A DNA stretch of 64,000 bases, taken from the IMG/VR virus record IMGVR_UViG_3300006484_001465, positions 45,444 through 109,443 of that record. The stretch is one strand, 5' to 3'. Below the pieces are notes generated by a model. It did not search any database, was not told where the DNA came from, and saw nothing but the letters and a program-made list of their open reading frames with translations. The position numbers and the translations under genes are program-made. This DNA is from a virus. This document shows, piece after piece, positions 23,724-59,807 of the stretch (position 1 is the stretch's first letter; every line of letters starts with the position of its first letter).

Positions 23724-26246
23724 ATGAGAGTAATTAAAAGAAACGGTACTGATGAATTAGTTAGATTTGACAAAATTTCATCTAGAGTAAAAAAACAAAC
23801 TTACGATTTAGATAGAGATTATGTTGATGCTATGGAAGTGTCCAAAAAAGTAATTTCAGGTTTATATGATGGTGTTACATCAAAAGAATTAGATAAATTG
23901 GCGGCTGAAACTGCGGCCTCTTTAACTAGAATACATCCTGATTATTCTATATTGGCAGCTAGAATAGCAATCACATCGTTAAAAAAAGAAACTAATAAAA
24001 GTTTCAAAGATACAATTGAGAAGTTGTATACATATGTTAATAAAAAAACTGGTGAAAATGCTGGTTTAATTTCAGATGAAGTCTATAAGGTAGTTATGGA
24101 ACATTCAGATAAAATTGAGTCAATGATTGTTCACGATAGAGATTTTAATTTTGATTACTTTGGATTTAAAACACTTGAGAAAGCATATCTATTAAAAATT
24201 GATGGAAACATTGGTGAAACACCACAACAATTATATATGAGGGTTTCAATAGGTATTTGGGGTGATAATTTAAAAGAAGTTCAAAAAACTTATGAAATGT
24301 TATCAACTGGAGTATTTACACATGCAACACCAACATTATTTAATGCTGGAACTAAAAAACCACAATTATCATCTTGTTTCTTACTTGATGTTGATTCTGA
24401 TTCAATTCATGGTATCTACAAGACTTTAGCAGACTGTGCTGCGATTTCACAATCAGCTGGTGGTATTGGATTAAACATTCATAAAGTTAGAGCTAAAGGT
24501 TCTTATATTAAAGGAACTAATGGTGAATCAAATGGTATTGTACCTATGCTTAAAGTGTTTAACGAGACTGCACGTTACGTTGACCAAGGTGGTGGTAAAA
24601 GAAAAGGTTCTATAGCTGTTTATTTGGAACCATGGCATTCTGACATTAAAGATTTCATTAACTTGAAAAAGAATCATGGTAAAGAAGAAGCTAGAGCTAG
24701 AGATTTATTTTTGGCTTTATGGGTTCCAGATTTATTTATGGAAAGAGTTGAAATAAATGGTAGTTGGACATTATTTGACCCAGCTGAAGTTCCAGGTTTA
24801 ATTGATGCTGTTGATTCTGAAACAAATAAAGCGTTTACAACACTTTATGAGAAATATGAATCAGAAGGTAGAGGTGAAACTATTAGCGCAAGAGAACTTT
24901 GGTTACACATTTTAGAAAATCAAATTGAGACAGGTGTTCCATATATTTTATATAAAGATGCAGCAAACAATAAATCAAACCAAAAGAATTTAGGAACTAT
25001 TAAGTCATCGAACTTATGTACTGAGATTATTGAATACACATCACCAGAAGAAACTGCCGTATGTAATTTAGCATCAATTGCATTACCTAAATTCGTTACT
25101 ATACCTAGTGGTAAAACTAAATCTAGAGATAAAGGTTTAAGAACATTTGATTTTGATAAATTATATGAAGTATCTTACCAGGTTGCGGTTAACTTAAATA
25201 GAGTAATTGACGTTAACTGGTACCCAACTGTTGAAACTGAACGTTCAAATATGAGACATAGACCAATTGGTATTGGTGTACAAGGTTTAGCTGATTTATT
25301 TGCAATGATGGCTTTACCATTTGAAGATGATTTGGCTAAAAAATTAAATAATGATATATTTGAAACTATCTATTTTGCATCTATGACCGCATCAAAAGAT
25401 ATGGCTAAAAGACAATATAGAGCTGAAGTTAAAAGACTAAAAGAACAAGATTCTATTTTAGTTGTTGACAAAACCTTTGGTGCTTATTCATCATTTAACG
25501 GTTCACCATTATCAGAAGGTATATTCCAATTTGATATGTGGGGTTTTAAATCTAATGAGTTATCAGGAAGATGGGATTGGGATTCATTAAAAAAAGAAGT
25601 TATGATTTATGGTGTTACCAATTCATTACTATTAGCACCAATGCCAACAGCATCTACAGCTCAAATTTTAGGTAACAATGAATGTTTCGAACCATTCACA
25701 TCAAATATCTATAAGAGAAATGTTTTATCTGGTGAATTTGTAATGGTTAACAAACATTTAGTTTTAGACCTTATTGATTTAAATTTATGGAACGATGAGA
25801 TTAGATTGTTAATGATTAAAGAAAATGGGTCAATCCAGAATATAGCACAAATTCCAGATAGTCTAAAAGAAGTATATAAAACAGTTTGGGAAATGAAATC
25901 TGCAAACTTAATTGATATGGCTGCTGATAGAGGTAAGTTCATTTGTCAATCTCAATCAATGAATTTATTTATGAGAGATGCAAATGTTGCTAAATTAAAT
26001 AAAGCATTATTCTACGGATGGAAAAAAGGTTTAAAAACTGGAATGTATTACTTGAGAAGTAATTCTAAAACACAAGCTAGACAATCATTAGGTGTTGATG
26101 ATTCAACAATTACTGAGATACCTAAAATCGAAACAACAATTCCGAAACCAATTAGTTCATCAATGAGTGCTGAAGAAATTGAGGCGATGAACGGGTTAAC
26201 CTGTTCAATAGATAATCCAGACGACTGCATTGCATGTGGTAGTTAA
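23724..26246 (+). CDS. nrdA: Ribonucleotide reductase large subunit, class I
   Basis: An 840-residue catalytic subunit. Residues 1-95 are an ATP-cone (MRVIKRNGTDELVRFDKISS), so allosteric activity control may be kept. Catalytic-domain landmarks include LSSCFLLD (redox Cys), NLCTEIIEYTSPEETAVCNL (Asn, Cys and Glu of the active site) and LLAPMPTASTAQILGNNECF. The C-terminal tail reads LTCSIDNPDDCIACGS, with a CIAC pair of redox cysteines; this ending resembles eukaryotic R1 proteins more than E. coli NrdA. It is the last gene of the cassette and a terminator follows directly. No glutaredoxin or thioredoxin gene was seen nearby, so reduction presumably relies on the host or on a gene outside the window. 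Confidence 0.95.
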   Translation: MRVIKRNGTDELVRFDKISSRVKKQTYDLDRDYVDAMEVSKKVISGLYDGVTSKELDKLAAETAASLTRIHPDYSILAARIAITSLKKETNKSFKDTIEKLYTYVNKKTGENAGLISDEVYKVVMEHSDKIESMIVHDRDFNFDYFGFKTLEKAYLLKIDGNIGETPQQLYMRVSIGIWGDNLKEVQKTYEMLSTGVFTHATPTLFNAGTKKPQLSSCFLLDVDSDSIHGIYKTLADCAAISQSAGGIGLNIHKVRAKGSYIKGTNGESNGIVPMLKVFNETARYVDQGGGKRKGSIAVYLEPWHSDIKDFINLKKNHGKEEARARDLFLALWVPDLFMERVEINGSWTLFDPAEVPGLIDAVDSETNKAFTTLYEKYESEGRGETISARELWLHILENQIETGVPYILYKDAANNKSNQKNLGTIKSSNLCTEIIEYTSPEETAVCNLASIALPKFVTIPSGKTKSRDKGLRTFDFDKLYEVSYQVAVNLNRVIDVNWYPTVETERSNMRHRPIGIGVQGLADLFAMMALPFEDDLAKKLNNDIFETIYFASMTASKDMAKRQYRAEVKRLKEQDSILVVDKTFGAYSSFNGSPLSEGIFQFDMWGFKSNELSGRWDWDSLKKEVMIYGVTNSLLLAPMPTASTAQILGNNECFEPFTSNIYKRNVLSGEFVMVNKHLVLDLIDLNLWNDEIRLLMIKENGSIQNIAQIPDSLKEVYKTVWEMKSANLIDMAADRGKFICQSQSMNLFMRDANVAKLNKALFYGWKKGLKTGMYYLRSNSKTQARQSLGVDDSTITEIPKIETTIPKPISSSMSAEEIEAMNGLTCSIDNPDDCIACGS

Positions 26247-55512: not shown

Positions 55513-55912
55513 AAAAGTTAAAGAAGAAATTTGGGATTATTGTCGTTTGAATGACATACCCAATATTGATGACTTCATATTAAAAATGGTATCTCAAGGG
55601 TTTACTGTTGAAAAGTATGGAGCAGCACCAACAGCCAAAGAACGAATAGTTGAAAAGATTGTTGAAAAAATAATTGAGGTAAAAGTGGATAAAATTGTTG
55701 AAAAGATAGTTGAAGTACCAGTTGAAAAAGAAGTATATATTACTGATAATACTGAAATAAAAACTTTAGCTGACCAAATCACTAAATTGGAAACTGACCG
55801 TGATTATTATAAAAAAGAAATGGAACACTTTCAATTAGAATGGAATAATACCTTGCAAAAATTAGAAATTGAGCAAAGTAAGAATAAAAAGAAAGATATT
55901 TATGGTGAGTAA
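55499..55912 (+). CDS. Unknown coiled-coil protein with VEK-repeat linker, 137 aa
   Basis: A 137-residue protein. The N-terminal ~45 residues (MEIPKKVKEEIWDYCRLNDI) look helical and may be a small binding domain. Then comes a low-complexity run of 'I/V-V-E-K-I-V-E' units (VEKIVEKIIEVKVDKIVEKI), followed by a charged coiled coil to the end. The repeated VEK/VEV linker is seen in many phage and bacterial proteins as an extended spacer. The gene overlaps both neighbours and directly precedes the gp46 N-part. Role unknown. Confidence 0.6.
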   Translation: MEIPKKVKEEIWDYCRLNDIPNIDDFILKMVSQGFTVEKYGAAPTAKERIVEKIVEKIIEVKVDKIVEKIVEVPVEKEVYITDNTEIKTLADQITKLETDRDYYKKEMEHFQLEWNNTLQKLEIEQSKNKKKDIYGE

Positions 55913-56489
55913 TGTTAAAGAGGTTTTAAATATACCTAAGAATGCGAGAATAAAGGTATATTGGGATGATACCCCAGAGAATTATAGTAGAGAATCTAAG
56001 AATAGAGTTCAAAGGTATTTCGCTAAAAAATATGGTATTGATAAAAATAATATCCAGGTTGAGTATAGACCAGTTAGAATTGGTAAGAATGGTAAGTTAA
56101 TACAAATTGATGGTGCATCAATTGATAACATCATGGATACTGCTTACCAAAGAGAATTATTCAAGGAATGGTTAAGTAGGAATAACAAAACTGTTAGTAT
56201 TGAAAGATTATATGCTTTAGATGATAAAGTTAATGGTGAATTAAATAGTGACAATGATGAAGTGTCATACAAACGATGGAATCTAAAATGGGTTACATTA
56301 AATAACTTCTTATCATTTGGTAATGATAATTTTTTCCCTATGAATCACTTTAGAGGGTTAACAGTTGTCAACTCAATTCCAGAAAATCAAGGTGGTAAAT
56401 GTATTAGGTCTGATACTAAGGTTACTATAGAATATAATACTGATGAAATTATTAAAAAACTAGGTTTTTTACCAGATGAGTTAAAATAA
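55902..56489 (+). CDS. 46: gp46 N-terminal part fused to split-intein N fragment
   Basis: The ATG at 55902 (overlapping the previous stop by 11 bases) is chosen over 55869, which would overlap by 44. The product has 195 residues. The first 166 are the N-extein: an N-terminal extension, then LKWVTLNNFLSFGNDNFFPM and GLTVVNSIPENQGGK, the first strands and P-loop start of an SMC/Rad50-like ATPase. From residue 167 the sequence is intein: C-I-R-S-D-T-K-V, block A with the essential Cys1 and an 'S-x-D-T-x-V' core. It stops after 29 intein residues. The P-loop is cut directly after its Lys; the Thr that completes it is in the gene starting at 57567. Alone this half cannot bind ATP, so trans-splicing is required. 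The normal first Gly of the P-loop is Pro here (PENQGGK). Confidence 0.88.
   Translation: MVSNVKEVLNIPKNARIKVYWDDTPENYSRESKNRVQRYFAKKYGIDKNNIQVEYRPVRIGKNGKLIQIDGASIDNIMDTAYQRELFKEWLSRNNKTVSIERLYALDDKVNGELNSDNDEVSYKRWNLKWVTLNNFLSFGNDNFFPMNHFRGLTVVNSIPENQGGKCIRSDTKVTIEYNTDEIIKKLGFLPDELK
56400..56486 (+). other. Split intein N fragment (IntN, 29 aa)
   Basis: The 29 codons begin with TGT (Cys1) right after Gly-Gly-Lys of gp46. CIRSDTKVTIEYN is intein block A; DEIIKKLGFLPDELK follows and ends at TAA. This is much shorter than IntN of common split inteins (~90-120 aa) and close to the atypical split inteins of AceL-TerL type (IntN 25 aa). Confidence 0.87.
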
Positions 56490-56550
56490 ATTACCACATC
56501 TCTTTACCTTTTTGGTTATAAGGTTATATTTATATAAAAATATAATAAGC
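56490..56550 (+). promoter_or_regulatory. Intergenic gap with candidate promoter for the endonuclease
   Basis: TATATTTATA at 56525-56534 is preceded by TTTAC (56503-56507), a layout close to the sigma-factor gene promoter (60462-60492). The box ends 16 bases before the ATG at 56551, so the endonuclease and gp46 C-part may be transcribed independently. No terminator is seen. Confidence 0.4.
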
Positions 56551-57570
56551 ATGGGAAAAAGGTATGAATTTACAGAAGGTGAAATTAAAAATATGGTTGA
56601 TATGTATTTAAATCAATTAGAGGGTGTTTATAATATAGCTAAAAAATATGGTGTCGATGAAAGTGTGATTAAAAATAGATTAATTAAAAGTGGGATTAAG
56701 ATAGCTAAAGGTTCACCTTATTCCATTAAGTATTGGAATCAAAGGGGGCTTAGTGATAATGAATCCAAAGAACATATTAAAACACTTAGACCAGTTAATA
56801 AAGAATATTGGATTAAAAATGGTTACACTGAAGAAGAAGCGATATTACAAATTGAAGGTCAAAAAATGGTTTCTTTAAGAGGTTGTATAGCTAGATTTGG
56901 TGAAAAAGAAGGTATTAAAAAATGGGAAGAGCGAGAAGGTAAAAGAAGTGCTGCTGGTAAACTTGGAAGTACAAATCTTCAATATTGGTTAAATAAAGGA
57001 TATTCTGAAGAAGAATCAATAATAAAACGTTCAGAAAGACAAAAAACATTTTCAAAAGAGGGGTGTATTAAAAAACACGGTGAAGAAAAAGGTTTAATGA
57101 TTTTCACTGAAAGGCAAAATAAATGGTCTAAGTCATTATCATCTGGTGGTAATTTAAAAATAGGGTATTCTAAAATATCACAAGATTTATTTAATGTTTT
57201 ATTGGAAACCTATGATATTGATAATAGAAATAATATTTATTTCGCTACTCACAATAAAGAATATAAATTAGATAAATGTGAATCAGAAGGTGGAATTTGG
57301 TTATATGATTTTACTGATGTCAATAATAAAAAAATAATTGAGTTTCATGGTGATATGTTTCATGGAAACCCCAAGAAATATAAAGCAACAGATTACCCGC
57401 ATCCATTTAGAAATACGATAACAGCACAAGAGATGTGGAATAAGGATAAAAGGAAATTGGATGTTGCTATTGAAGGGGGTTTTGAAGTGTTGGTTATATG
57501 GGATTCCGAATATAGATGGGGAAATAAAGAAGGTGTAATAAATAAATGTAAAAAATTTTTAGAAATATGA
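56551..57570 (+). CDS. Vsr-like homing endonuclease between the intein halves
   Basis: A 339-residue protein. The frame extends to 56512, but the ATG at 56551 (MGKRYEFTEGEIKNMVDMYL) follows a promoter-like box and is preferred. Residues ~1-50 form a likely helix-turn-helix. Three 'Y-W-x-x-x-G-x-S/T-x-x-E' units follow (YWNQRGLSDNES, YWIKNGYTEEEA, YWLNKGYSEEES), interleaved with two 'R/K-x-G-E-x-x-G' units (RFGEKEGIKKWEERE, KHGEEKGLMIFTERQ), probably DNA-binding repeats. The C-terminal ~85 residues are Vsr/EDxHD-like: IIEFHGDMFHGNP, NKDKRKLDVAIEGGFEVLVI and WDSEYRW. Such endonucleases are known from fractured phage genes carrying split inteins. The gene end overlaps the C-part start by ATGA. 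Confidence 0.85.
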   Translation: MGKRYEFTEGEIKNMVDMYLNQLEGVYNIAKKYGVDESVIKNRLIKSGIKIAKGSPYSIKYWNQRGLSDNESKEHIKTLRPVNKEYWIKNGYTEEEAILQIEGQKMVSLRGCIARFGEKEGIKKWEEREGKRSAAGKLGSTNLQYWLNKGYSEEESIIKRSERQKTFSKEGCIKKHGEEKGLMIFTERQNKWSKSLSSGGNLKIGYSKISQDLFNVLLETYDIDNRNNIYFATHNKEYKLDKCESEGGIWLYDFTDVNNKKIIEFHGDMFHGNPKKYKATDYPHPFRNTITAQEMWNKDKRKLDVAIEGGFEVLVIWDSEYRWGNKEGVINKCKKFLEI

Positions 57571-57938
57571 AAAAAGTATTAACAATCGGTGAATTACATA
57601 AAATTTATCAAAAATATGGTGATTTAGGGTTTAAAGTTGAAACACCATATGGTTTTAAAGGTATTGAATGGTGTGGTATAACCGAGGAAAATGCGGATAT
57701 ATATAGATGTGAATTGGAAAATGGTATGTATGTTGAAGGTGCTGATTACCATAAATTAAAACATGAAAATGATGAATTCATTCATTTAAAAGAAGCTGAA
57801 GTAGGAGTACCAATACAAACGATTGATGGGATTAGTAAAATTAAAACCATTGAGTTAATGGATTTTAAAGATACTTTATATGACATACAAGTAGCTGAAG
57901 TTCATCAATATTACACCAATGGTATAGTATCACACAAT
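57567..57938 (+). other. Split intein C fragment (IntC, 124 aa)
   Basis: Starts MKKVLTIGELHKIYQKYGDL. Block F is clear (LYDIQVAEVHQYYTNGI) and is followed by block G, VSHN, with penultimate His123 and Asn124. The next residue, Thr, is the +1 nucleophile. The likely block B histidine is H62 (GADYHKL), but the usual Thr three positions before it is Ala. No endonuclease domain lies inside. Confidence 0.87.
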
Positions 57939-59807
57939 ACAACATTAACTGTTGATTCAATCAAATACTTATTATTTGGTAAAACAACAAAGACTGATAG
58001 AAATGAGGAAGTCTTTAACTTACATAGTGATGACAATGAATTAGTTGTTAGAGGTATGATAGAGATTGAAGGTGATGAGGAAATAATCATCGAAAGAAAC
58101 ATGAAAAGGTCTAAAAATAAATCAGGTGGGTGGACTATAAAGAATACGCTGAATTATTATAAAATACTACCTGATGGTGAAGAAGAAGTATTAAATGATG
58201 AGGACGCAACTAAAACTACCAAAAAGATTAGAGATACTATTGGTACTGAAAAGGATTTTGAATTAGTTGTATTAGCAACTGCTAGAAATTTGGATGATTT
58301 AATTGATTTTACATCTGGAGAAAGTGGTAAGTTATTAACTAGATTCATTGGGCTTGATATTATTGAAACAAAAGAAGAAATAGCTAGAAACATGTATAAT
58401 ACGTTTTCTAAAACTATGAAATCAAACTTACATGATATTGTAACTTTATCTGATGAGATTCAAACACATACTGAGAATATAGTTAAACTAAAAGAAATTG
58501 AGATTGATTTAAATCTTAAATTAGATGCTGAAAAAAAATCAATTATTAATTTGACAAATGAAAAGTTAGATTTAGTTTCCAGTAAGATTAAAATTGATGT
58601 TGAGATATTAACCTTAAACCCATCAAAACTACAAGAAGATATCGATGCAATAATTAAGAGTGGTATTGAATACAAAGGTGAAATTGATACTATAGTTGAA
58701 AGGATAACAGAAATTGGACCATTAGTATTTGATGAAGATAGACATTTTGAGATTACTAATGAAGTTAATACATTAAACACATCTGTCGCTGTTAAATCTG
58801 CCGAAGTTGAAAGATTAAATCAAGTTGTTGAAGATTTGATTGCTGGTGGTATATGTAAAGCTTGTAATAGAAAGTTAGATGATGTTGATAATTCAAATCA
58901 TATATTAGAACACGAAACAACAGCTAAAACTATTGGAACTGAAATTGATAAGATTAACAAAAAATTAAAAAAGTTGAATGATGAGTTAACTAAGTTAAAT
59001 ACTGTTAAAAAATTGGTTGATGAAGTTAATAAATTGGAATTAAGTAAGGATAAGTTTGAAGTTGAGATAACATCATTGAAAAATGATTTAAAATCTAAAA
59101 AAGTTGACTTAAAAAAATATAATGATAATTTAAGTGCTATTGATACTAATAAAAATATTGACGCTACAATATCATCAGTTGATACTAAATTGAATGTTTG
59201 TGACCACCAAAAAACTGAAATAAATAACAAGATACAAAGAGTATTATTGGATATTGAATCAAATGGTACTGATATTGTAAACAAAGATAAACTAATTGTT
59301 CAAATCAAGAAAGAAAAGGAAATTGAAATGATTTACAAATTGTATATTGATATGATTGGTAAGAAAGGCATTAGCAAATTAGTTTTAAGGTCAGTTTTGC
59401 CGATTATCAATTCAGAACTACAAAGATTATTAGATGATGTAACTGATTTTGAAGTTGAAATTTCTATTGACGATAAAAATGAAGTTAGATATTTATTAAT
59501 AAAAGATGATATAGAAAAACAATTAAAAGCTGGTAGTGGTTTTGAAAGAACCGCATCTAGTTTGGCTTTGAGGTGTGTATTAGGTAAAATGTCTAAATTA
59601 TCCATGCCGAATTTTATAACATTTGATGAAGTACTTGGTAGAGTTGCACCAAATAACGTTGAGAAGATGAAATTGTTATTTGATAAAGTTAAAGATATGT
59701 ATGATAATATATTCTTTATAACTCAAAATGAGATTGTTAAGGATTGGGCTGACAACATAGTGACTGTTATCAAAGAAAATAATATATCAAAAATTAAAAT
59801 AAGTTAG
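57567..59807 (+). CDS. 46: Split-intein C fragment fused to gp46 C-terminal part
   Basis: A 746-residue product. Residues 1-124 are intein (IntC) ending V-S-H-N. From Thr125 the C-extein resumes the P-loop (TTLTVDSIKYLLFGKTTKT) and the Rad50/SbcC/gp46 ATPase. A long coiled coil is broken by the zinc hook CKAC (GGICKACNRKLDD). The ABC signature is GSGFERTASSLALR, and Walker B is NFITFDEVLGRV, with FFITQNE as the switch region. Joined to the 166-residue N-extein it gives a 788-residue gp46, larger than T4 gp46 (560 aa) but normal for SbcC-like relatives. The start codon overlaps the endonuclease stop (ATGA), so its translation is probably coupled to that gene. Confidence 0.88.
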   Translation: MKKVLTIGELHKIYQKYGDLGFKVETPYGFKGIEWCGITEENADIYRCELENGMYVEGADYHKLKHENDEFIHLKEAEVGVPIQTIDGISKIKTIELMDFKDTLYDIQVAEVHQYYTNGIVSHNTTLTVDSIKYLLFGKTTKTDRNEEVFNLHSDDNELVVRGMIEIEGDEEIIIERNMKRSKNKSGGWTIKNTLNYYKILPDGEEEVLNDEDATKTTKKIRDTIGTEKDFELVVLATARNLDDLIDFTSGESGKLLTRFIGLDIIETKEEIARNMYNTFSKTMKSNLHDIVTLSDEIQTHTENIVKLKEIEIDLNLKLDAEKKSIINLTNEKLDLVSSKIKIDVEILTLNPSKLQEDIDAIIKSGIEYKGEIDTIVERITEIGPLVFDEDRHFEITNEVNTLNTSVAVKSAEVERLNQVVEDLIAGGICKACNRKLDDVDNSNHILEHETTAKTIGTEIDKINKKLKKLNDELTKLNTVKKLVDEVNKLELSKDKFEVEITSLKNDLKSKKVDLKKYNDNLSAIDTNKNIDATISSVDTKLNVCDHQKTEINNKIQRVLLDIESNGTDIVNKDKLIVQIKKEKEIEMIYKLYIDMIGKKGISKLVLRSVLPIINSELQRLLDDVTDFEVEISIDDKNEVRYLLIKDDIEKQLKAGSGFERTASSLALRCVLGKMSKLSMPNFITFDEVLGRVAPNNVEKMKLLFDKVKDMYDNIFFITQNEIVKDWADNIVTVIKENNISKIKIS

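What the first reader, a model, noticed from the sequence alone, without database searches (positions are those of the whole stretch)
56551..57570. Vsr-like homing endonuclease with DNA-binding repeats, coupled to the gp46 C-part
The C-terminal EFHGDMFHGNP and VLVIWDSEY motifs point to a Vsr/EDxHD nuclease, preceded by a helix-turn-helix and two families of short repeats. Its stop overlaps the IntC start (ATGA), so making gp46 C-part may depend on translating the endonuclease, which would stabilise an otherwise selfish gene. A TATATTTATA box could express both separately.
Basis: partly seen in the sequence, partly recalled or inferred. Interest (0 to 1): 0.55.

Follow-up and report, generated by a model that had tools for sequence, protein, structure and literature searches.

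The report
Homing nuclease inside a split gene
A phage DNA-repair gene (gp46) is cut in two by a split intein with a Vsr-like DNA-cutting gene lodged between the halves; the arrangement is of a known kind, but this nuclease looks like a joint of two relatives that sit in different genes, which suggests how such elements might reach new targets.

Summary
56551-57570 is an intact 339-aa ORF with an N-terminal HTH, five short repeats and a C-terminal Vsr-like fold (Vsr Z 11.3, I-Bth0305I Z 10.0). It lies between two halves of gp46 (SbcC-like), fractured after the Walker A lysine by a split intein (29-aa N-half, VidaL-like C-half). A phage contig ~97% identical in DNA has the gene uninterrupted (ENQGGK|TTLTVDS): the 1,539-bp element (56400-57938) is a presence/absence polymorphism. 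Inteins of relatives are more alike than their host genes, as homing predicts. Of 63 nuclease ORFs among the closest relatives, 56 sit at a Walker A GK|S/T site of five ATPase kinds. This nuclease is a chimera: DNA-binding half like gp46 elements, catalytic half like a Clp element (break near residue 148-156; direction of exchange open). The TATATTTATA box ends a 31-nt block, intact in 11 of 13 nuclease-bearing loci of this intein type and 0 of 3 without the nuclease: probably the nuclease's promoter. Stop/start overlap occurs in 6 of 11 loci, gaps of 63-514 nt in 5, and nuclease-free loci exist, so obligate coupling is not supported. New member of a known kind ('fractured genes').

The parts
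55902..56399 (+). gp46 N-part, N-extein, ends ...ENQGGK (Walker A lysine)
   Evidence: Frame read; contiguous with the C-part in L084, N-part 99% identical
56400..56489 (+). IntN, 29 aa (CIRSDTKVTIEYNTDEIIKKLGFLPDELK) plus stop
   Evidence: the end GFLP[DN]ELK is shared by the ten distinct relatives found through IntC with a visible N-part of this type; five more were found by that very motif
56503..56533 (+).
   Evidence: Best ungapped match 25-29 of 31 in ten of twelve other nuclease-bearing spacers, 0 of 1000 shuffles each; L105 22 of 31 (2 of 1000), L115 15 of 31 (770 of 1000)
56551..57570 (+). Vsr/EDxHD-type homing endonuclease gene, 339 aa
   Evidence: phrog_22677 E = 1e-26
56551..56700 (+). 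HTH, residues 1-50
   Evidence: Model helices; VIA-align Z 4-5.5
56719..57135 (+). Repeat array, about residues 57-195: YW, YW, GCI, YW, GCI
56992..57018 (+). Recombination break between gp46-type and Clp-type halves, residues 148-156
   Evidence: MaxChi-type test, chi2 54.6-131.7, 0 of 2000 permutations in each of four comparisons
57163..57567 (+). Catalytic domain, residues 205-339
   Evidence: Vsr and I-Bth0305I fold matches
57567..57570 (+). ATGA, overlap of nuclease stop and IntC start
57567..57938 (+). IntC, 124 aa, ends VSHN
   Evidence: VidaL 6vgv E = 6.1e-7 over 3-124, CatC 6dsl E = 0.0054; Pfam Intein_splicing E = 0.00093, below the curated cut-off
57939..59807 (+). gp46 C-part, C-extein, starts TTLTVDS
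   Evidence: phrog_77 SbcC-like E = 1.3e-36; 98% aa identity to L084

Best explanation
The 1,539 bp from 56400 to 57938 are one mobile element: IntN, a spacer with a likely promoter, a homing endonuclease gene, IntC. Shown: it sits exactly between the Walker A lysine and threonine codons of phage gp46, is absent from the same place in a ~97% identical phage contig, and its parts recur in the gp46 of diverged phages. Inferred: the nuclease is made from its own late-type promoter, binds gp46 DNA through its HTH and repeat array, and cuts at or near GGT-AAA^ACA in intein-less alleles; repair from the donor copies the whole element. Also inferred: the two gp46 halves trans-splice, so the P-loop is rebuilt and the phage survives. 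Shown by sequence, mechanism inferred: the nuclease is modular. Its N-terminal half goes with the target gene (gp46), while its catalytic half is shared with a nuclease whose element sits at the equivalent P-loop site of a Clp gene; which of the two was the donor is open.
For: Fold: Vsr Z 11.3, I-Bth0305I Z 10.0. Empty allele L084: uninterrupted gene, flanks of about 6 kb 96.9% and 96.7% identical; no nuclease match at E up to 0.001 in that 66-kb record. Intein more alike than host protein: window against L087 IntC 90%, IntN 79%, exteins 52% and 60%; against L090 IntC 76%, IntN 66%, exteins 33% and 35%. Purifying selection on the nuclease: dN/dS 0.14-0.24 in four comparisons. Chimera: residues 1-148 are 68, 71 and 70% identical to L087, L088 and L091 and 28% to Clp-type L001; residues 195-339 are 84% identical to L001 and 50, 71 and 53% to L087, L088 and L091; DNA identity reaches 96% to L087 and L091 (residues 91-120) and 93% to L001 (241-270); MaxChi-type test 0 of 2000; the trees of the halves disagree. 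Promoter block intact in 11 of 13 nuclease-bearing, 0 of 3 nuclease-free loci.
Against: No cleavage or splicing was or could be tested. The flanks next to the insertion show no divergent co-conversion tract against L084, so the last donor was a close relative, or L084 lost the element by recombination. The records are fragments, so absence elsewhere is not shown. The catalytic residues were judged by conservation, not by a residue-level overlay on I-Bth0305I. No significant copy of the homing site was found in the spacer. The promoter reading rests on conservation and position; the generic sigma-70 scan finds no excess in the region (8 found, 8.7 expected), and nuclease-free L092 keeps the first 25 of the 31 nt of the block, 21 of them as in the window.
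Confidence: 0.85

Rival explanations
1. The nuclease is a passenger: the element is inherited vertically and no longer homes.
For: Three of 16 loci of the type have no nuclease (L092, L093, L102), so the split intein persists without it. No co-conversion tract against L084.
Against: Intact ORF, dN/dS 0.14-0.24, near-identical empty allele, intein identity far above extein identity.
Confidence: 0.1
2. One reading: gp46 C-part is translated only after the nuclease, so the phage cannot lose the selfish gene.
For: Stop/start overlap in six of eleven measurable loci of the type, and in the more distant L008. (Odds raised from 0.10 to 0.15 after L109 and L115 were added.)
Against: Gaps of 63-514 nt in five of eleven and 10-77 nt in four Clp loci, nuclease-free loci, AT-rich leader like those of other genes. 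A better hold on the phage is the insertion inside the P-loop itself, from which only precise loss is viable (inference).
Confidence: 0.15
3. A free-standing DNA-repair Vsr that happens to lie between two halves of a split gene.
For: The best fold match is Vsr.
Against: 56 of 63 close relatives lie inside split inteins at P-loops; long HTH-repeat half, where the Vsr chain has 155 residues in all.
Confidence: 0.02
4. The apparent chimera is an artefact of unequal rates (catalytic half conserved, DNA-binding half fast).
For: Against Clp-type nucleases the catalytic half is the more alike throughout.
Against: L087, L089 and L091 are closer to the window in the N-half (68, 64, 70%) than in the C-half (50, 52, 53%), the opposite of L001 (28%, then 84%); permutation test 0 of 2000. 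Rates alone do not give crossing similarities.
Confidence: 0.04

Closest known systems
Fractured genes with split inteins and Vsr-like homing endonucleases (Dassa et al. 2009, doi 10.1093/nar/gkp095; not held, content recalled, title seen only in reference lists)
   Same: Gene broken by IntN and IntC with a free-standing EDxHD nuclease between; phage DNA-metabolism genes
   Different: gp46 as host gene (I do not recall it among theirs); chimeric nuclease; near-identical empty allele
Aeromonas phage Aes517 fractured polB (record JN377904)
   Same: Deposited annotation reads N-intein, putative VSR endonuclease, C-intein
   Different: DNA polymerase gene; its nuclease is 29% identical over 49% of ours
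I-Bth0305I (PDB 3r3p)
   Same: Catalytic domain fold, Z 10.0, 26% identity over 94 residues; elongated multi-domain DNA-binding protein (passages of PMC3943268)
   Different: Encoded in a group I intron (recalled); not part of an intein
Atypical split inteins VidaL, AceL-TerL, Cat
   Same: Very short IntN (29 aa here; 25 for AceL-TerL in passages of PMC11766414); IntC matches VidaL E = 6.1e-7
   Different: Inserted in gp46; IntN alone has only an unrelated ribosomal match in the PDB (E = 0.7)
Classic P-loop inteins, e.g. mycobacteriophage TerL1-a (passages of PMC5050341)
   Same: Insertion between the invariant Lys and the Thr of Walker A
   Different: Contiguous inteins with internal nuclease domains (recalled); here split, with a separate nuclease gene

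Membership tests
EDxHD (Vsr-like) homing endonucleases | Vsr/I-Bth0305I catalytic fold | tested here: met
   Z 11.3 to 1cw0, 10.0 to 3r3p, residues 204-339; other chains tie at Z 9-10
EDxHD (Vsr-like) homing endonucleases | Conserved catalytic acidic and histidine residues | tested here: inconclusive
   Of 42 relatives D268 is invariant and D253, E264, H271 are at 90% or more; E237 invariant in 8. The correspondence to the letters EDxHD was not overlaid.
EDxHD (Vsr-like) homing endonucleases | Extended modular DNA-binding region | tested here: met
   HTH plus five repeats; DNA binding itself not tested
EDxHD (Vsr-like) homing endonucleases | Site-specific cleavage of the allele without the element | not testable with these tools
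   Needs protein; target allele known from L084
Fractured genes | Host gene in two ORFs ending and starting with intein halves, intact homologue elsewhere | tested here: met
Fractured genes | Homing endonuclease ORF between the halves | tested here: met
Atypical split inteins (VidaL, AceL, Cat) | IntN of about 25-37 aa and a large IntC | tested here: met
   IntN 29 aa, IntC 124 aa; known range from passages
Atypical split inteins (VidaL, AceL, Cat) | Sequence kinship | tested here: met
   IntC to VidaL E = 6.1e-7 over residues 3-124; IntN alone finds nothing related
Atypical split inteins (VidaL, AceL, Cat) | Splice residues: Cys1, penultimate His, terminal Asn, Thr+1 | tested here: met
   C at 56400, SHN|T at the IntC end
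Atypical split inteins (VidaL, AceL, Cat) | Protein trans-splicing | not testable with these tools
   Bench assay needed
Mobile intein (homing) | Presence/absence at one exact site with intein more alike than extein | tested here: met
Mobile intein (homing) | Co-conversion of flanks | tested here: inconclusive
   Flank bins 0.90-1.00 against L084, no divergent tract

The most novel reading that the evidence does not exclude
A nuclease family specialised on the one DNA word shared by otherwise different ATPase genes, the Walker A GK-T/S codons, spreads split inteins through phage P-loop genes by changing modules: a common catalytic module cuts at the P-loop word while the HTH-repeat array chooses the gene. 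The window holds the product (or the donor) of a recent natural exchange between a gp46-reading and a Clp-reading nuclease; a 362-kb phage contig that carries both elements shows where such exchange could happen.
Probability: 0.45. Interest if true: 0.65.

Novelty: new member of a known kind. Interest (0 to 1): 0.45.

Why it matters
The arrangement is known, but this locus has what makes it testable: a nearly identical phage contig with the empty site, loci of the same intein with and without the nuclease, and a nuclease whose two halves resemble those of nucleases in two different target genes. That makes the question of how homing endonucleases acquire new targets directly testable with natural parts, and adds gp46 and Clp split inteins with N-halves of about 29-35 aa to candidates for protein ligation.

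Tried and rejected
Autorepression operator: in T4 I-TevI binds an operator like its homing site over its late promoter (passages of PMC2988022). The spacer block resembles the reverse complement of the gp46 site in the window (13 of 20), but 74 of 150 shuffles do as well; over nine loci the shuffle counts run from 4 to 74 of 150. Not supported.

Co-conversion tract against L084: none seen.

Sequence-only searches of the PDB: the 42-row nuclease profile gave no match up to E = 10, the catalytic domain alone three unrelated weak ones, IntN alone one unrelated weak one.

TATTTAT as a general leader box of the whole nuclease family: 15 of 47 leaders that I listed, shuffle mean 2.9, 0 of 500 as high. 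The hits lie mainly before gp46- and Clp-type nucleases; 32 of 47 have none, so no family-wide motif is claimed.

The identity of 0.857 for the block is inflated, because the 11 loci were picked by a pattern that fixes about 17 of the 31 positions. On the 14 free positions it is 0.738 against 0.567 at third codon positions of IntN, higher in 52 of 55 pairs; the motif-free test is.

Megablast of 14 kb of the window against named phages gave no match. A scan of bacterial and archaeal genomes with the nuclease alignment gave six loci at 28-35% identity, not followed up.

The automatic family labels in the script are rough: L011 and L031 are listed as 'TerL?' though their exteins are gp46; L024 and L048 show false N-sides; L031 and L045 show false C-sides. 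I corrected these by eye. In one search the focus line for the gp46 N-part used a wrong start (55908; the ATG is 55902) and is not used.

Full report
Observation. The ORF at 56551-57570 is as described: 339 aa from ATG, TGA overlapping the ATG of the next gene as ATGA. The gene before it (55902-56489) ends ...ENQGGK followed by 29 residues CIRSDTKVTIEYNTDEIIKKLGFLPDELK; the gene after it (57567-59807) begins with 124 residues ending VSHN and then TTLTVDS..., and matches the SbcC-like phage family phrog_77 at E = 1.3e-36. The gene at 53369 matches SbcD-like phrog_100, as expected near gp46.

What the nuclease is. No Pfam family fits; phrog_22677, of unknown function, does at 1e-26. An AlphaFold2 model from 42 relatives has mean pLDDT 87.8 but pTM 0.51, so the domains are sure and their arrangement is not. 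Foldseek finds no match with E under 0.001; its first row is a mitoribosomal chain, the relevant ones near the top are Vsr 1cw0 and 1vsr and I-Bth0305I 3r3p, E 0.02-0.1, probability 0.99-1.00. VIA-align gives Vsr Z 11.3 (115 residues, rmsd 2.9), 3hrl Z 10.2, I-Bth0305I Z 10.0 (94 residues, 26% identity) for about residues 204-339, with mitoribosomal and FASTKD4 chains at Z 9.1-9.9, and HTH domains at Z 4-5.5 for about residues 2-50. Between them lie three YW-type and two GCI-type repeats.

The intein. IntC matches the solved split intein VidaL at E = 6.1e-7 over residues 3-124 and CatC at 0.0054. With a 29-aa IntN this is an atypical split intein.

The element as a unit. A scan with the C-extein found L084, L083 and L085 (98, 79 and 59% identical), all three with an uninterrupted gene, and L086 at 31%. 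L084 and the window share 96.9% and 96.7% of bases over about 6 kb on each side and differ at the site by exactly 1,539 bp, window 56400-57938. The L084 record has no match to the nuclease at E up to 0.001. The flank bins show no divergent tract (0.90-1.00 over 3 kb left and 0.95-1.00 over 2.3 kb right).

The same split intein elsewhere. A scan with IntC gave 14 loci; a degenerate pattern for the IntN end, which does not depend on the nuclease, gave 17 stretches. Together these are 16 distinct loci with an IntN ending GFLP[DN]ELK, the window included, near-copies L095-L097 counted once; L099 (another IntN end) and L100 (N-part off the contig) are left out. Thirteen have a nuclease ORF, three (L092, L093, L102) do not, and their records hold no match to it at E up to 0.001. 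L105 and L113 are cut by their contig ends; L105 and L115 have other C-terminal parts. Identity to the window (amino acids) for N-extein, IntN, IntC and C-extein is 52, 79, 90, 60% for L087; 61, 86, 86, 58 for L088; 46, 72, 81, 43 for L089; 33, 66, 76, 35 for L090; 33, 62, 74, 32 for L093 (in L091, L092 and L094 too both intein halves are more alike than both exteins). Inteins more alike than the essential protein around them point to horizontal movement.

The wider family. Of 278 relatives in viral contigs the best 80 were kept; the contigs recur among them. Collapsed by their last 60 residues these give 63 nuclease ORFs, some still near-copies (L034 and L036, L051 and L052); loci found through IntC and the window are not counted. 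Reading together, 56 of 63 lie at a Walker A site with the intein between GK and S/T: both halves visible in 52, one half only in four (L020, L045, L048, L066). Of the other seven, L013 (first nuclease) is in a P-loop but at a different residue; L038 (second), L078 and L079 precede C-exteins that look like family B DNA polymerase (motif recognised from memory); L073 is in an anaerobic ribonucleotide reductase; L039 is in an unidentified gene; L038 (first) has no visible intein. Pfam names of ten representative C-parts include AAA_2 with ClpB_D2-small, DnaB_C, Gp44_lid (clamp loader), Terminase_6N, SbcC_Walker_B (below cut-off) and NRDD; L039 had none. The set is the closest part of the family, so the share may differ further out. 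P-loop insertion as such is 'classic' for inteins (PMC5050341, passages).

The chimera. Against gp46-type nucleases L087, L088, L091 the window is 68, 71, 70% identical in residues 1-148 and 50, 71, 53% in 195-339; against Clp-type L001 it is 28% and 84%. In DNA the peaks are 96% to L087 and L091 (residues 91-120) and 93% to L001 (241-270). A MaxChi-type test puts the break at residue 148 (L087, L091) or 156 (L088, L094), chi2 54.6 to 131.7, with 0 of 2000 permutations as high in each. In the tree of the N-halves the nine gp46 nucleases are one side of a branch (99/100); in the tree of the C-halves they are not (three changes, 0 of 200 bootstrap trees), and the window's nearest row is L001 (L008 and L006 are long branches, several forks are open, and the window itself is in no small starred set). 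L088, L094 and L098 also have catalytic halves in the branch with the Clp ones (97/96), so there was more than one exchange, or an old and a recent one, and the direction between Clp and gp46 is not determined. One 362-kb phage contig carries both a Clp and a gp46 element (L007 and L091). The window's site and that of L001 both read GGTAAA|ACA, which would let one catalytic module serve both; that is inference.

Expression. Between the IntN stop and the nuclease ATG lies the non-coding block TTTACCTTTTTGGTTATAAGGTTATATTTAT (56503-56533). Its best ungapped match in the other twelve nuclease-bearing spacers is 25-29 of 31 in ten (0 of 1000 shuffles each), 22 in L105 (2 of 1000) and 15 in L115 (770 of 1000); in the nuclease-free loci it is 23 in L092 (0 of 1000), 14 in L093 and 15 in L102 (both chance). 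L092 keeps the first 25 nt but lacks the ATTTAT end. So the intact block with its TATATTTAT end is in 11 of 13 nuclease-bearing loci and 0 of 3 nuclease-free ones; the loci are related, so this is not a formal test. In the window TATTTATA occurs six times in the leaders of 39 gene starts, the nuclease's own included, against 0.98 in shuffles (0 of 500); of the genes concerned two are baseplate wedge genes, one a sigma factor, two have no family. I read the block as a late-type promoter of the nuclease, as for T4 intron nucleases (PMC2988022, passages). No other place in the window matches it with 4 or fewer mismatches at 21 fixed positions.

Coupling. Overlap in six of eleven measurable loci, gaps of 63-514 nt in five, gaps of 10-77 nt in four Clp loci, overlap in L008; nuclease-free loci exist; SD sites are rare. 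A simpler reason for persistence is that the insertion splits the ATP-binding loop itself, so only precise loss or faithful splicing is viable (inference).

Known or new. Fractured genes with Vsr-like nucleases were described in 2009 (paper not held; recalled), and a deposited Aeromonas phage record shows one in polB. A search for 'split intein' with 'gp46' found no paper in the held library; that library is partial. I file this as a new member of a known kind, with the traceable module exchange as its point of interest.

Noticed in passing
L013, 2773-6723: One Clp gene appears to carry two split-intein elements with nuclease relatives, one at each AAA P-loop; the first C-half is followed by CGKT, so it lies before the lysine (its N-half was not identified).
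   Followed up: partly
L031, L036, L037: Contigs with two neighbouring fractured genes (DnaB-type helicase and gp46), each with its own nuclease relative.
   Followed up: no
L094 5487-6005 and L098 5484-5996: An extra ORF of about 170 aa between the nuclease and IntC, of unknown function.
   Followed up: no
L105, 4205-5170 after reverse complement: gp46-type array joined to a different C-terminal part, without a Vsr motif in the visible stretch (contig end): possibly another catalytic swap.
   Followed up: no
L008 and L021 (same contig): More distant gp46 element with Ser instead of Cys as first intein residue, an N-part ORF that overlaps the nuclease gene, and the stop/start overlap.
   Followed up: partly
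window, 38 gene starts: Few Shine-Dalgarno sites (24 of 38 starts without a match of three or more bases, 36% of random positions), AT-rich leaders: typical of phages of Bacteroidota-like hosts (inference).
   Followed up: partly
window 2640, 26280, 26306, 27789, 46731, 60487: TATTTATA in gene leaders, candidate late promoter motif of this phage.
   Followed up: partly
L025-L028: Clp elements in which only a 110-aa open stretch of the nuclease is left: loss in progress.
   Followed up: no
L007/L091 contig (362 kb, G007): Besides the Clp and gp46 elements, two further weaker nuclease relatives at 25868-26074 and 181109-181681.
   Followed up: no
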